The position numbers and the translations under genes are program-made. DNA of 64,000 bases from Phycisphaerae bacterium (GTDB lineage Bacteria > Planctomycetota > Phycisphaerae > UBA1845). The stretch spans positions 62,001 through 126,000 of the forward strand of contig JAJDEB010000032.1 of NCBI GenBank assembly GCA_029260015.1. The letters are read 5' to 3'. The notes below the pieces were generated by a model. The model was not told the DNA's origin and made no database searches. It saw only the letters and a program-made list of their open reading frames with translations. Every line of letters starts with the position of its first letter. Positions within the stretch are counted from its first letter, which is position 1. Below are positions 22,927-39,634 of the stretch, piece by piece.

Positions 22927-23739
22927 ATGGAAAACAAACCGTTTCTATCGCGACTAAAGGGCTGGTTTCAGCCGGGGGCGGCTGGCAGCGCGACCGATGT
23001 GATGGATTCGCCGTCGGATGGGGCTATCACTGATTCGAAGGATGCCAGCGATAAGCCCAGGACAATTGATCAATGGACAGGTCAAAAGCACCCCAACACG
23101 ACGCCATCAAGTGAGCAGTCGGCTGACACCCGATCGAGTGATCGCGTGCAACTCGGTTCGCTTTCCCCTGGCCAAAACAAATTGGAAAAGCTGCAGGACG
23201 GTTATCTGCAAGTCATCGAATTGGTCGAGACAATCCGCAAGCATCAGGATCGTCAGGATGAACGGGCAGTCGAATTTTCGACTTCGTTATCAAAGATGGC
23301 CAACACGTTGGCAGAAATCGAAAAGGGCAACCATCAGCAGGTTGACCAATTGGGCAACATCGCCGATGAATTGAAAGCCGGTAACAAACGCGGCGATCAT
23401 TGGCAAGAAGTACTTGCCGAGTTTCCGAAAACTGCCCAGGCGCAACGAGAGGCGTTGATGGGCGTGACGCGGCAGATGGAGGCTGTGGGCGATCGTGATG
23501 ACAAGATGACCGGTTCGCTCGATTCGCTGCGCGACGCGGTCACTGCGCTAGGTGATGCAACAACGGCATCGAGTGTGGCGGTCAAGAATTTGCAAATGAC
23601 GGCGATCGAAGACAGTGAGCGGACGGCCGACCTTTTGGTGTCGCAGAACAAGCGGTTCACGATGCTTTTCGCGCTGACCGTAACACTGACCTTGGTGGCG
23701 TTGATCACGGGTGTGTTGGCGTATACGCGTGGTGGTTGA
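22927..23739 (+). CDS. Coiled-coil protein with C-terminal membrane anchor
   Basis: 270 residues, ribosome-binding site GGGGAG. Residues about 1-80 are polar and probably disordered; about 80-235 are heptad-rich helix (LEKLQDGYLQVIELVETIRK, MANTLAEIEKGNHQQVDQLG, and similar), and about 245-267 one membrane helix (MLFALTVTLTLVALITGVLA) close to the C-terminus. This is the plan of a tail-anchored scaffold or a chemoreceptor-like sensor without a signalling tip. No known domain was recognised. It lies directly upstream of pilT (57 bp), in the same direction, so a link to type IV pilus retraction or polarity is possible but unproven. Confidence 0.75.
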   Translation: MENKPFLSRLKGWFQPGAAGSATDVMDSPSDGAITDSKDASDKPRTIDQWTGQKHPNTTPSSEQSADTRSSDRVQLGSLSPGQNKLEKLQDGYLQVIELVETIRKHQDRQDERAVEFSTSLSKMANTLAEIEKGNHQQVDQLGNIADELKAGNKRGDHWQEVLAEFPKTAQAQREALMGVTRQMEAVGDRDDKMTGSLDSLRDAVTALGDATTASSVAVKNLQMTAIEDSERTADLLVSQNKRFTMLFALTVTLTLVALITGVLAYTRGG

Positions 23740-24915: not shown

Positions 24916-25112
24916 TCGCAGTTGAATAATCCGCCGAGTTGGTCATTCGCCGGTTATGGGGCGTCCATTCACCCGCCGCAGGTCCGATCTTGTGTCACCC
25001 CATCATGAATCAGTGATGCCTCAAATCGTTCATTTAGCTTGCTAATTGATCTGCCGATGATTCGTGTCCAGCAGAGCGGGGACGCTCTGTGGATACCTCT
25101 TGGAGATCAAAA

Positions 25113-27419
25113 ATGTTGGAACTGCTTCGCAATAGCACGATGTTCGGTTTAATGATTGTTGCCTTGGGAATCGCTATCCCAGGCTGCGAGAATGGTTCCA
25201 ATTCTGACGGTTCGGGCGGAGGTTCCAATCAAACGGACGCCAAGAACCAGTTGGCTGTCAATGACGATCCCAATAGCAATCTCGTCGCGCAAGCCAAGGT
25301 CAGCGACGGCAGCTCGTTTTCTGTATTCGGTGAGAAAAATGGCGACGGTGACGTCGAACAGGTTTCGCAAATTGACATGGTCTTGGAAGGCGGCGAATCG
25401 CTGACGCTGGAACTCGACGATAATGGGCGACCCGTTCTCGTCGATGGCGGTGAATCCAAGACGACGTTCTCGTACGATGACGACACCGCCACCGTTCAAG
25501 CCGAAGTCGATGATTCAAACGGCACGTCCATTCTTGAAGGTGACGTCACCGTCCAGGCTTCTGCAAAAATCGTAGGCCGTCGCTTTCGAGCGACTCCGGA
25601 ATCGTTGTGCGAACGTTTGCGAAACTCCCAAGGCGTACTTGAAAATCTCTTTCCTTGTGAGTCGGACGATTCAGATCAAGCCAGCGACGACAATTCGTCA
25701 TGTGGTGGAATTGCACCACGCGTCAAAAATGTGATCGATCGATTCTGTTCTGCGCAAGCCGAAGTCGTCACGCAAGTCGATGCGAACCTTTCCGACACAC
25801 CCAAAGTGATTCCGCTGGGTGTCAAGGGATTTTTCACGACGCGCCCGCGTGATGGTGGAGCGACAGTCGTTTTAGTAGCCACTGTATTTGGCGGTGTAAA
25901 GCCGATTGAAAACGTCGATTGGGAGTTGTCAGACGGGCCAGCCGCTCCAGTCGAAAATCTTCCCGGTGGCGTGGCGGTGGCAGACGTTGGTTCGGAAGGA
26001 ACGCACACTTTCAAAGTGACCGCTACCGACGGTGAGGGCACGAGCGCAACGCATGAAGTAGAGGTGGGGGAATCAAGGCGACCGGTGATCAATGTGATCG
26101 CCGACCCACCCAATGCAGCCCCAGGCGCAGAAGTTGCGTTTTCTGTTGAATCAAACGTCGATCTTCCCGCCGATGTTCTCGCCAATATCAAATGGCGGTT
26201 CGGTGATGACACCGAAGCCGTCGGTGCAAATGTGACCCATAGCTTTGACGAAGACGGCGCATTTGTTGTCGTCGCACTTCTTCGTGGTGGCGATCGCCGC
26301 GAAACCGCATCGACGGTCGTCCGCATCGGAGCAGACTTAGAATGCTGGGAAGGGTGCCAAACGCGCTCCGAGCAGGTCTTCTTCGAGTGTGACTTTGACA
26401 ATAACGGCGATGCGAACTGTGCTGCTCGCTCCAACGCGGTTCTGACGCAATGCTTGGCCGATCGATGCGGTGAAGAACTGGACTGCGAATTCCACTGCCA
26501 TCGATTCGGTGCGAAAGTAAGACGACAGTGCATGTCCGCCGGTGGCAATCGACGCTTGTGTGCGGCGGCTGGTCGTGCGGCGCGGATGTATTGCACGTTT
26601 GAACAGTGCGACGAAGACGCCGATTGCGAACAGTTCTGTGACGACGACTTCGATCTGTTCGTCGATGAGTGCTTGGAGGGCGAAGATCGCGGTGTGGACT
26701 GCGAGGTGTCGGCAGAGGATTCAATCGACGAGTGCATCGTCGAAGAATGCGGCGCCGATTTTGAATGTGAAGATGATTGCGCCGATCAAGCCGATCGACT
26801 CTTCGGGGCGTGCAGCGACAGCGGCGCATCGTTTGATGAATGTGCGGCTCGCTCGCGCCGGTTCTTTGAAGACTGTGCCCGTGAACAGTGCGACGTTGAG
26901 TTCGATTGTGAAGCAGTATGCGAAGACCAGCGCGAGCAGATCATCGCTGAATGCGAAGCCGATGGCGTCGATCCACAAATTTGCCGCCAGGACGCCCGTG
27001 ACTTCGTCGACCATTGCCTGTTCGAACACTGCGGTGTTGCAGGCGCAACGGTACCGGTTGACGACGACATTGATGCGATCGACCCCAACGACTTTGGCGG
27101 TGATTCAATTGAAGAGTGCAAGGAACAGTGTCGTCAGGACGCAGACCTAGCCGACCGAGAATGTCGGGACACGGGGGGAACAGGCGCAGAATGCCGTTCG
27201 TTGCGAGAATTCATCCTGCAAGACTGCATCGAGGTGCTGTGCGAAAATGGCGATCCGGCTGATGGTGACCCATTCGGCGACGATCCGTTCGGGGACGACC
27301 CATTCGGAGATGATCCACCACCGCCACCTCCCGGAGACGACCCGTTTGGTGATGATCCGCCACCACCACCCCCAGGAGACGGCCCGTTCGGCGACGGTCC
27401 TCCGCCACCCGGACCGTAG
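25113..27419 (+). CDS. Large PKD-domain lipoprotein with six 47-residue cysteine repeats
   Basis: 768 residues from ATG 25113, behind TTGGAGA. The lipobox AIPGC (Cys about 24) gives a lipoprotein. Residues about 25-190 are acidic and beta-rich; about 230-320 and 325-405 look like two PKD-type Ig sandwiches (WRFGDDTEAVGANVTHSF). Residues 411-710 hold six repeats, each with six Cys spaced exactly C-x3-C-x10-C-x9-C-x10-C-x4-C; the first five follow one another with five residues between, and the sixth comes after a 28-residue acidic insert. The end (about 710-768) is built of DDPFG and PPPPPPGD units. The repeat suggests stacked disulfide-held helical hairpins. Function is unknown; surface adhesion or a spacer role is inferred. 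It is convergent with pyrB. Confidence 0.85.
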   Translation: MLELLRNSTMFGLMIVALGIAIPGCENGSNSDGSGGGSNQTDAKNQLAVNDDPNSNLVAQAKVSDGSSFSVFGEKNGDGDVEQVSQIDMVLEGGESLTLELDDNGRPVLVDGGESKTTFSYDDDTATVQAEVDDSNGTSILEGDVTVQASAKIVGRRFRATPESLCERLRNSQGVLENLFPCESDDSDQASDDNSSCGGIAPRVKNVIDRFCSAQAEVVTQVDANLSDTPKVIPLGVKGFFTTRPRDGGATVVLVATVFGGVKPIENVDWELSDGPAAPVENLPGGVAVADVGSEGTHTFKVTATDGEGTSATHEVEVGESRRPVINVIADPPNAAPGAEVAFSVESNVDLPADVLANIKWRFGDDTEAVGANVTHSFDEDGAFVVVALLRGGDRRETASTVVRIGADLECWEGCQTRSEQVFFECDFDNNGDANCAARSNAVLTQCLADRCGEELDCEFHCHRFGAKVRRQCMSAGGNRRLCAAAGRAARMYCTFEQCDEDADCEQFCDDDFDLFVDECLEGEDRGVDCEVSAEDSIDECIVEECGADFECEDDCADQADRLFGACSDSGASFDECAARSRRFFEDCAREQCDVEFDCEAVCEDQREQIIAECEADGVDPQICRQDARDFVDHCLFEHCGVAGATVPVDDDIDAIDPNDFGGDSIEECKEQCRQDADLADRECRDTGGTGAECRSLREFILQDCIEVLCENGDPADGDPFGDDPFGDDPFGDDPPPPPPGDDPFGDDPPPPPPGDGPFGDGPPPPGP
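26343..27242 (+). repeat. Protein-level repeat array, 36 cysteines in six units
   Basis: Units begin at residues 411, 458, 505, 552 and 599 (period 47), and a sixth after a short insert. All six keep the spacing 3-10-9-10-4 between cysteines with otherwise different residues, so selection has held the spacing while DNA identity has been lost. Confidence 0.9.
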
Positions 27420-27444: not shown

Positions 27445-27520
27445 GTGCCACTGCTTTGTGAGCAGTGCGAATACGAGTCGGGTCCAATGCGCAAATGCAC
27501 TGCTCACAGAGCAGTGGCAC
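27445..27520. repeat. Paired-hairpin element GTGCCACTG, copy 1
   Basis: Two 24-bp arms, 27445-27468 and 27497-27520, are reverse complements with one mismatch. Each arm is itself a hairpin (CACTGCT...AGCAGTG). It lies between the convergent stops of the cysteine-repeat gene and pyrB and may also act as a two-way terminator. A second copy is at 39498-39634. Confidence 0.85.
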
Positions 27521-32888: not shown

Positions 32889-33674
32889 TTAGGCTTTGCG
32901 GCGACGCAGGACGGTGATTCCACCGAGTGCGAGCAACGCAAGTGATGCAGGTTCCGGAAGAACCGAAGCAAAGTCTGAACCTGCAGCAACGGCATCGACG
33001 CTGACAATAGCGTGATCGCCACCGCTGATGAAGTCTTGACGAATGGCCACACCGGTGAGCCCGACCGAAGCTGAACTGATGTCGCTCACGCTCGTGCTGG
33101 CTTCGCTTGCCGGATCAACCCACATGTTTGAAACACCTGAATCAAAATCGTAGGAAATGATGAGTTGATATTGAGTATCAAAATCGAGGTCCGTTCCCCA
33201 CTCCACAGCCGGCTCTCCGGATGAACCCGAAAGGCCCAAGGTGTAGTGGTTGGCATCGCTACCATCACGCAGGTGGACACGCGACTTGAAACCGATGAAA
33301 TGCGCGAAGTAGGCCTGGTCACCATTAAAGGCCTCAACGCCACCGCGAAGATCTTCAACTGAGAAGATGTAGCTGGCGTAGAGAGTTTCGCCCGCACCCA
33401 ATGTGCCACCAGTCAAACGGGTAGCGTCCTCGCTCGCAGGGTTACCCTGACGCAGGATGGCCTGGCCACTGCTTACCTCGATCGACGTGGGGAAGGTAGA
33501 ACCACTGTGCGGAGCCCAGAGTCCACCTGAGACGTCGTCACCGGTTCCATCGTAAACGGTGAGATCGCCATCGGCATAGTTGAATTCATCGTTCCAAAAC
33601 AGCGCGGCATCGGCCGACGCGGTGAGGAATAGTGCGGCGAGAGAGGCCGCCAGAATTGACTTACGAAGTCCCAT
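32889..33674 (-). CDS. PEP-CTERM surface protein 1
   Basis: 261 residues. Signal peptide about 1-23 (LAASLAALFLTASADA). The body (about 24-225) is a beta-rich lectin/LamG-like domain (WNDEFNYADGDLTVYDGTGD and similar). The C-terminus has the sorting signal: LPEPASLALLALGG near residue 239, a hydrophobic helix, and RRRKA. Such proteins are recognised by exosortase, which is encoded at 1.6-2.6 kb. Ligand and role unknown. Promoter and leader are nearly the same as those of the next PEP-CTERM gene (34190-34825), although the two coding regions are unrelated. A strong AGGAGGAG precedes the start. Confidence 0.9.
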   Translation of the reverse strand: MGLRKSILAASLAALFLTASADAALFWNDEFNYADGDLTVYDGTGDDVSGGLWAPHSGSTFPTSIEVSSGQAILRQGNPASEDATRLTGGTLGAGETLYASYIFSVEDLRGGVEAFNGDQAYFAHFIGFKSRVHLRDGSDANHYTLGLSGSSGEPAVEWGTDLDFDTQYQLIISYDFDSGVSNMWVDPASEASTSVSDISSASVGLTGVAIRQDFISGGDHAIVSVDAVAAGSDFASVLPEPASLALLALGGITVLRRRKA

Positions 33675-39497: not shown

Positions 39498-39634
39498 GTG
39501 CCACTGCGCTGTGAGCAGTGCGATCTGCAAGTGCGCGCATTTCATTGGAACTACCAATGCGTCATTCGATGGTTGCGTCGTTCTTTCGTTGCTAGCGATT
39601 TCCGCGTTCCGCACTGCTCACAGAGCAGTGGCAC
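39498..39634. repeat. Paired-hairpin element GTGCCACTG, copy 2
   Basis: Arms 39498-39521 and 39611-39634, reverse complements with one mismatch and matching copy 1 at 23 to 24 of 24 positions; the centre (about 90 bp) is unlike that of copy 1. The right arm reaches into the 3' end of the glycosyltransferase gene and supplies its TGA. Like copy 1 it sits between convergent genes. Confidence 0.85.

What the first reader, a model, noticed from the sequence alone, without database searches (positions are those of the whole stretch)
26343..27242. Six-fold 47-residue repeat with six invariantly spaced cysteines in a planctomycete lipoprotein
Each of six units has Cys spacing 3-10-9-10-4 without one exception, while most other residues vary; five units run in strict 47-residue period. 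This is stronger spacing conservation than usual for surface repeats and points to a stacked disulfide-bonded helical-hairpin module. I do not know a named domain with this spacing. It follows two PKD-like domains and a lipobox, so it would be exposed outside the cytoplasm.
Basis: partly seen in the sequence, partly recalled or inferred. Interest (0 to 1): 0.78.

Follow-up and report, generated by a model that had tools for sequence, protein, structure and literature searches.

The report
Disulfide-stapled helical-hairpin repeats in bacterial lipoprotein
A predicted bacterial surface lipoprotein carries six copies of a small two-helix module pinned together by three predicted sulfur bridges, and the same uncatalogued module turns up in long arrays in many exported proteins of two distant bacterial groups, probably as a tough extracellular building block.

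Summary
Six units with Cys spacing 3-10-9-10-4 lie exactly where stated. Non-Cys identity between units is only 3-19%, so the spacing is kept by selection. The unit is widespread: I collected 409 units in 65 proteins, from the window's own family (29 of 51 genomes), a distant order of the same phylum (5 of 10), and the phylum of a Myxococcales MAG (14 of 237). None was found in 249 and 198 genomes of two other phyla. No Pfam, NCBIfam or PDB entry describes it. Sub-threshold hits include several disulfide-stapled helical hairpins (thionin, hefutoxin, COX17/COX6B, alpha-hairpinin). AlphaFold2 gives each unit as a helix-turn-helix (mean pLDDT 92). The Cys spacing is palindromic, so pairs 16-26, 5-37 and 1-41/42 fall on one antiparallel register. 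Cysteines are lost in those pairs: 22 units lack exactly C1+C42, one lacks exactly C16+C26. The hairpin reading is therefore supported. "Stacked" is not shown: linkers vary and inter-unit placement is uncertain, so beads on a string is likelier. Most likely function (inferred): a protease-resistant extracellular spacer or binding array. It is an uncatalogued domain of a known structural kind, not a new mechanism.

The parts
25089..27419 (+). whole ORF (776 aa from GTG; likelier start ATG at 25113), exported Cys-rich lipoprotein
25113..25187 (+). signal sequence and lipobox (AIPGC, Cys33), followed by a Gly/Ser/Asn-rich tether
   Evidence: sequence; lipobox-like Cys conserved in relatives
25188..25598 (+). 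N-terminal predicted beta domain (residues 34-170), no Pfam match; found without the hairpin array in other families of the order
25599..25808 (+). helical segment with four conserved Cys (residues 171-240)
25827..26321 (+). two PKD domains
   Evidence: Pfam PF18911/PF00801, two stretches
26343..26468 (+). hairpin unit 1, Cys 3-10-9-10-4
26484..26609 (+). hairpin unit 2
26625..26750 (+). hairpin unit 3
26766..26891 (+). hairpin unit 4
   Evidence: AF2 model of units 4-5
26907..27032 (+). hairpin unit 5
27033..27116 (+). acidic 28-residue linker between units 5 and 6
   Evidence: pLDDT about 37
27117..27242 (+). hairpin unit 6
27249..27416 (+). acidic, Pro/Gly-rich low-complexity tail (FGDDP / PPPPPP)
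   Evidence: sequence

Best explanation
The repeat is an exported, independently folding helical-hairpin domain of about 42 residues. Helix 1 carries C1, C5 and C16; a turn (usually GG) follows; helix 2 carries C26, C37 and C41/42. Three disulfides (16-26, 5-37, 1-41/42) staple the two antiparallel helices. The protein is threaded out unfolded, lipidated at Cys33, and oxidised outside the cytoplasm, probably by the genome's VKOR-type pathway. The result is a lipid anchor, a beta domain, two PKD domains, and then an acidic string of six covalently locked hairpins. I propose that the string works as a degradation-resistant spacer or multivalent binding surface on the cell exterior. Shown: sequence pattern, conservation, distribution, VKOR gene. 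Predicted: the hairpin fold and export. Inferred: disulfides and their pairing (strong indirect evidence). Inferred, weak: spacer or binding role. The confidence given is for the hairpin plus extracellular structural role together; for the hairpin with this disulfide pairing alone I would say 0.85.
For: AF2 on 55 aligned two-unit segments: pLDDT 92, helices 2-22/27-45 and 52-69/74-93; the whole-protein model shows all 12 array helices. Cys positions obey i+j=42 for 16/26, 5/37 and 1/41, one antiparallel register; solved alpha-hairpinins obey the same rule (VhTI and EcAMP1 7-29/11-25, PMC7191063). Paired losses: 22 units in 9 proteins lack exactly C1+C42, one lacks exactly C16+C26; the few single departures are indels, truncations or one CxxC variant. 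Cys kept 30/30 against 53% identity elsewhere. Weak profile hits to disulfide hairpins; the thionin match covers the GG turn and the flanking C16/C26. VKOR in the own genome and in 65/65 good genomes of the order. Signal or lipobox sequences on many homologs; variable Pro/Glu-rich linkers. Acidic units, mean charge -4.8.
Against: No conserved neighbour: pilT upstream and pyrB downstream are syntenic only within the genus. The outer-pair losses are at unit ends, where erosion could be joint for trivial reasons. Some homologs combine the units with Kazal-like and other Cys-rich modules (L092), which hints at binding or inhibition rather than pure spacing.
Confidence: 0.55

Rival explanations
1. 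Polyprotein precursor: the hairpins are cut apart outside the cell and act as small peptides, like plant modular alpha-hairpinin precursors (signal peptide plus a cassette of up to 12 hairpin modules).
For: Same gene layout as the plant precursors described in PMC11591084; single-unit small secreted proteins exist on viral-collection contigs (L135, L138).
Against: Units are strongly acidic (mean -4.8, 91% negative), unlike cationic antimicrobial hairpins; no regular basic cleavage site in the linkers by eye; window linkers are only 5 residues; lipid anchor and PKD domains suggest retention.
Confidence: 0.1
2. Tandem protease inhibitor: each hairpin presents a loop to proteases, as VhTI and BWI-2 alpha-hairpinins do.
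For: L092 combines two units with Kazal-like and other Cys-rich modules (by eye); alpha-hairpinin trypsin inhibitors share the hairpin plan (PMC7191063).
Against: No conserved Arg/Lys in the turn; the turn consensus is GG followed by small or acidic residues. Pfam did not confirm Kazal in L092.
Confidence: 0.1
3. Metal (for example copper) binding by reduced cysteines, as in copper storage proteins or COX17.
For: CxxxC on a helix; a Csp3 chain appears low in the fold list.
Against: Cys lie in an antiparallel disulfide register and are lost in partner pairs; extracellular location; no Csp family match; the Csp3 match is weak (Z 3.7, rmsd 5.0) among generic helical hairpins.
Confidence: 0.07
4. 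True relative of the eukaryotic CHCH (twin CX9C/CX10C) family.
For: The core C5-x10-C16-x9-C26-x10-C37 is a twin CX10C hairpin; 22 units keep only these four Cys; weak hits to COX17, COX6B and a CX9C chain.
Against: All hits are below any threshold (one unit each, E about 0.01-0.02; PDB E 3.8); no intermediate sequences; short stapled hairpins arise convergently.
Confidence: 0.03

Closest known systems
Plant alpha-hairpinins (CX3C...CX3C; Antimicrobial21 and related)
   Same: Two antiparallel helices stapled by nested Cys pairs that share one register; modular precursors with many units after a signal peptide (PMC7191063, PMC11591084).
   Different: Shorter, four Cys (or 6C as CX3CX3C...CX3CX3C), usually cationic, plants only; here six Cys 3-10-9-10-3/4, long helices, inner 16-26 rung, acidic, bacterial.
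Plant thionins (PF00321), viscotoxins
   Same: Two-helix tip with C-x9-C and a GG turn; the match covers unit positions 12-33.
   Different: Thionins have CC near the N terminus and beta strands; only the tip matches and scores stay below the Pfam cut-off (22 against 23.6 bits).
CHCH / twin CX9C-CX10C proteins (COX17, COX6B, COA6)
   Same: Helix-turn-helix with nested disulfides between CXnC helices (PMC7909247).
   Different: Mitochondrial intermembrane-space single domains oxidised by MIA40; no significant sequence relation found.
kappa-hefutoxins (PF08095)
   Same: Cystine-stabilised two-helix fold with a CX3C...CX3C motif (PMC7191063).
   Different: 22-27 residue scorpion toxins with two disulfides; only 2 of 46 units touched the profile, best E 0.024.

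Membership tests
Plant thionin (PF00321) | Whole-domain profile score above the curated cut-off | tested here: not met
   Best whole protein 22 bits against 23.6 (L040); six of 46 units weakly, best E 0.0019
Plant thionin (PF00321) | CC near the N terminus and the thionin Cys order | tested here: not met
   Units have CX3C and no CC
Alpha-hairpinin | Motif CX3C-X(4-20)-CX3C (4C) or CX3CX3C-X(4-20)-CX3CX3C (6C) | tested here: not met
   Observed CX3C-X10-C-X9-C-X10-C-X3/4-C; definition from PMC11591084
Alpha-hairpinin | Antiparallel helix-loop-helix with nested disulfides | tested here: inconclusive
   Hairpin predicted; disulfides inferred from register and paired loss, not measured
CHCH (COX17 PF05051, COX6B PF02297) | Profile match | tested here: not met
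   One unit each at E 0.0088 and 0.019
CHCH | Twin CXnC core in a helical hairpin | tested here: met
   C5-x10-C16-x9-C26-x10-C37 in nearly every unit; hairpin predicted
PKD domain (PF18911/PF00801), for the upstream part | Profile above cut-off | tested here: met
   42.5 bits against 27, two stretches
Bacterial lipoprotein | Signal peptide ending in a lipobox Cys | tested here: inconclusive
   IPGC after a hydrophobic stretch; VPGC, LTGC, MTGC in relatives; no signal-peptide predictor was available
Any solved fold | Clear structural match beyond a generic hairpin | tested here: inconclusive
   No Foldseek match at E below 2.4; VIA-align 2 best Z 6.2 over 46 residues

The most novel reading that the evidence does not exclude
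An uncatalogued bacterial counterpart of plant alpha-hairpinin cassettes: arrays of three-disulfide hairpins, spread across at least two phyla, that bind or are released to act on other organisms or their enzymes, with the twin CX10C core as a bacterial example of a CHCH-like stapled hairpin.
Probability: 0.12. Interest if true: 0.65.

Novelty: new variant of a known kind. Interest (0 to 1): 0.45.

Why it matters
It defines a recurrent extracellular domain that Pfam and NCBIfam (2025-2026) lack, with an easily recognised signature (C-x3-C-x10-C-x9-C-x10-C-x3/4-C) and clear predictions: three named disulfides and independent folding. It would give names to many Cys-rich hypothetical proteins in the window's family, a distant order of its phylum, and the Myxococcales phylum. 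It also offers an acidic, multi-copy stapled-hairpin scaffold for protein engineering, and a test case for convergent evolution of disulfide hairpins.

Tried and rejected
Profile and single-sequence searches of Pfam, NCBIfam, PHROGs and PDB gave no named domain. A Terpene_syn_C_2 hit to L040 (30 bits summed over three stretches) was rejected as a repeat-summing artefact. The one scan of all GTDB contigs was wasted: my pattern was one base short, so its nine hits are taken as chance and serve only as a background rate; the corrected pattern was checked on L040 (5 hits) and run on viral contigs. MAFFT alignments of overlapping five-unit windows slipped register and were not used for folding. Fold searches gave only generic helical hairpins; the top matches of the whole-protein fold search are mostly Ig-like and PKD-type proteins, so they say nothing about the array. 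Single-unit pattern hits across the phylum were mostly low-complexity TGC/TGT repeats; only G123 and G365 were real among the distant ones listed. Operon logic: pilT and pyrB neighbours are syntenic in the genus but were found beside the gene in no other locus tested. Dockerin-like C-terminal ends in L037 and L039 were seen by eye, but Pfam did not confirm them.

Full report
Observation. The ORF at 25089-27419 (+) encodes 776 residues (likelier start ATG 25113). Six copies of C-x3-C-x10-C-x9-C-x10-C-x4-C lie at the stated place, five in an exact 47-residue period and the sixth after 70. Shuffling the region never gave more than one match in 20,000 trials. Outside the cysteines the five tandem units are only 3-19% identical to each other, yet each unit resembles the unit at the same position in same-genus relatives L004 and L006 (0.39-0.86), so the array is old and stable. 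In the most distant same-genus relative (L006) 30 of 30 array cysteines are kept while other residues are 53% identical, although 18 of those Cys codons differ synonymously. The spacing is under selection.

Distribution. Whole-protein search finds six-unit orthologs in all four other genomes of the genus; L007 and L008 in the same family are 36% and 34% identical. Other family members carry arrays of 3 to 13 units in proteins that otherwise look unrelated. A profile of 46 units (A2) matches 29 genomes of the order, all in the window's own family (29 of the 51 family members seen), and only 3 of 294 genomes sampled across the phylum. In the distant order of G123 it matches 5 of 10, and in the phylum of a Myxococcales MAG (L058/G505) 14 of 237. 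It matches none of 249 genomes of the phylum of a Pseudomonas and none of 198 of the phylum of a Kapaibacterium MAG; those two searches had no positive control inside them. Single-unit small proteins with signal-like N termini occur on two IMG/VR contigs (L135, L138). The scan of all GTDB contigs was lost to my pattern error, so the true range is not known.

Anatomy of the module. In a non-redundant set of 409 units from 65 proteins, 378 have all six cysteines. Among those the loop is 9 residues in 345, and the last gap is 4 (220) or 3 (149). Consensus: CEERC...A...F..CI..GGt.e.C...Ar..L..CL...C. The intra-unit spacing is nearly fixed while the unit-to-unit period varies from 45 to over 100 residues with Pro/Glu-rich linkers. 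This is what independent domains on a string look like.

Fold and disulfides. AlphaFold2 on two window units with 55 aligned rows gives pLDDT 92 and four helices, two per unit; pTM is 0.56, so the placement of one unit relative to the next is uncertain. The whole mature protein (6 rows, pLDDT 66) shows beta structure, PKD domains, then twelve helices. The cysteine positions are palindromic: 16+26 = 5+37 = 1+41 = 42, which puts the three pairs on one antiparallel register; with the x4 spacing the last one is one residue further. Solved alpha-hairpinins follow the same rule (7-29 and 11-25; PMC7191063). Losses agree: 22 units in 9 proteins lack exactly C1 and C42, and one lacks exactly C16 and C26; the few single departures are indels, truncated ends or a CxxC variant. 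Caveat: C1 and C42 are unit ends. A VKOR gene, which can drive extracytoplasmic disulfide formation in bacteria in place of DsbB (general knowledge), is in the window's genome and in all 65 good genomes of the order, so it fits but does not discriminate.

Comparison with known families. Nothing named covers the unit. Among the weak hits are thionin (6 of 46 units), hefutoxin, COX17, COX6B, Antimicrobial21 and, in PDB, viscotoxins and a CX9C chain: proteins built on disulfide-stapled helices, mixed with other chance matches. The thionin match is local, over the GG turn and the two cysteines that flank it. Membership fails by motif or by score in each case. It works like an alpha-hairpinin or CHCH hairpin; it is not shown to be one.

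Function. The window protein is a predicted lipoprotein with a beta domain, a four-Cys helical segment and two PKD domains before the array; related N-terminal/PKD parts occur without the array match in other families of the order, so the array is a separable part. Homologs include signal-peptide-only and lipoprotein-like forms and C termini that look dockerin-like by eye (unconfirmed). The shared denominator is export. Units are acidic (mean -4.8), which argues against membrane-active peptides. A robust extracellular spacer or multivalent binding array is the best guess; released peptides, protease inhibition and metal binding are live but less likely rivals.

Verdict. Real, well conserved and apparently uncatalogued, but of a familiar structural kind and without a demonstrated function.

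Noticed in passing
27445-27520 and 39498-39634: A 24-nt inverted repeat (GTGCCACTGCTTTGTGAGCAGTGC, 96% complementary, 28 nt between arms) after the array gene; the 23-nt core recurs as a second inverted pair near 39.5 kb with 0-1 mismatches, so it looks like a REP/MITE-type element.
   Followed up: partly
window residues 34-415 of the ORF (25188-26333); L009, L010, L012: The N-terminal beta domain plus PKD part matches ORFs of 979-1134 codons in another family of the order, without a match to the hairpin array; the N-terminal domain has no Pfam match.
   Followed up: partly
L135, L138: IMG/VR contigs encode small (about 100 aa) proteins with signal-like N termini and a single hairpin unit; L135 has two such genes close together.
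   Followed up: partly
L104, L105: Lipoprotein-like ORFs from the Myxococcales phylum mix the hairpin units with many copies of another Cys-rich module (CDDVQCDRGQRCEMSDDGPHCV).
   Followed up: no
L113 / L089: A long Cys-rich ORF (1130 codons in L113) combines hairpin units with many CDPxxCxPGDGVCDxxCDxxCDxDC repeats.
   Followed up: no
L107, L111: Arrays made largely of four-Cys units (pure twin CX10C hairpins), lacking C1 and C42.
   Followed up: partly
32892-33674 (-): Protein of 261 aa with a C-terminal PEP-CTERM motif.
   Followed up: no
22927-23739 (+): 270-aa ORF directly before pilT without any Pfam match at E 0.001.
   Followed up: no
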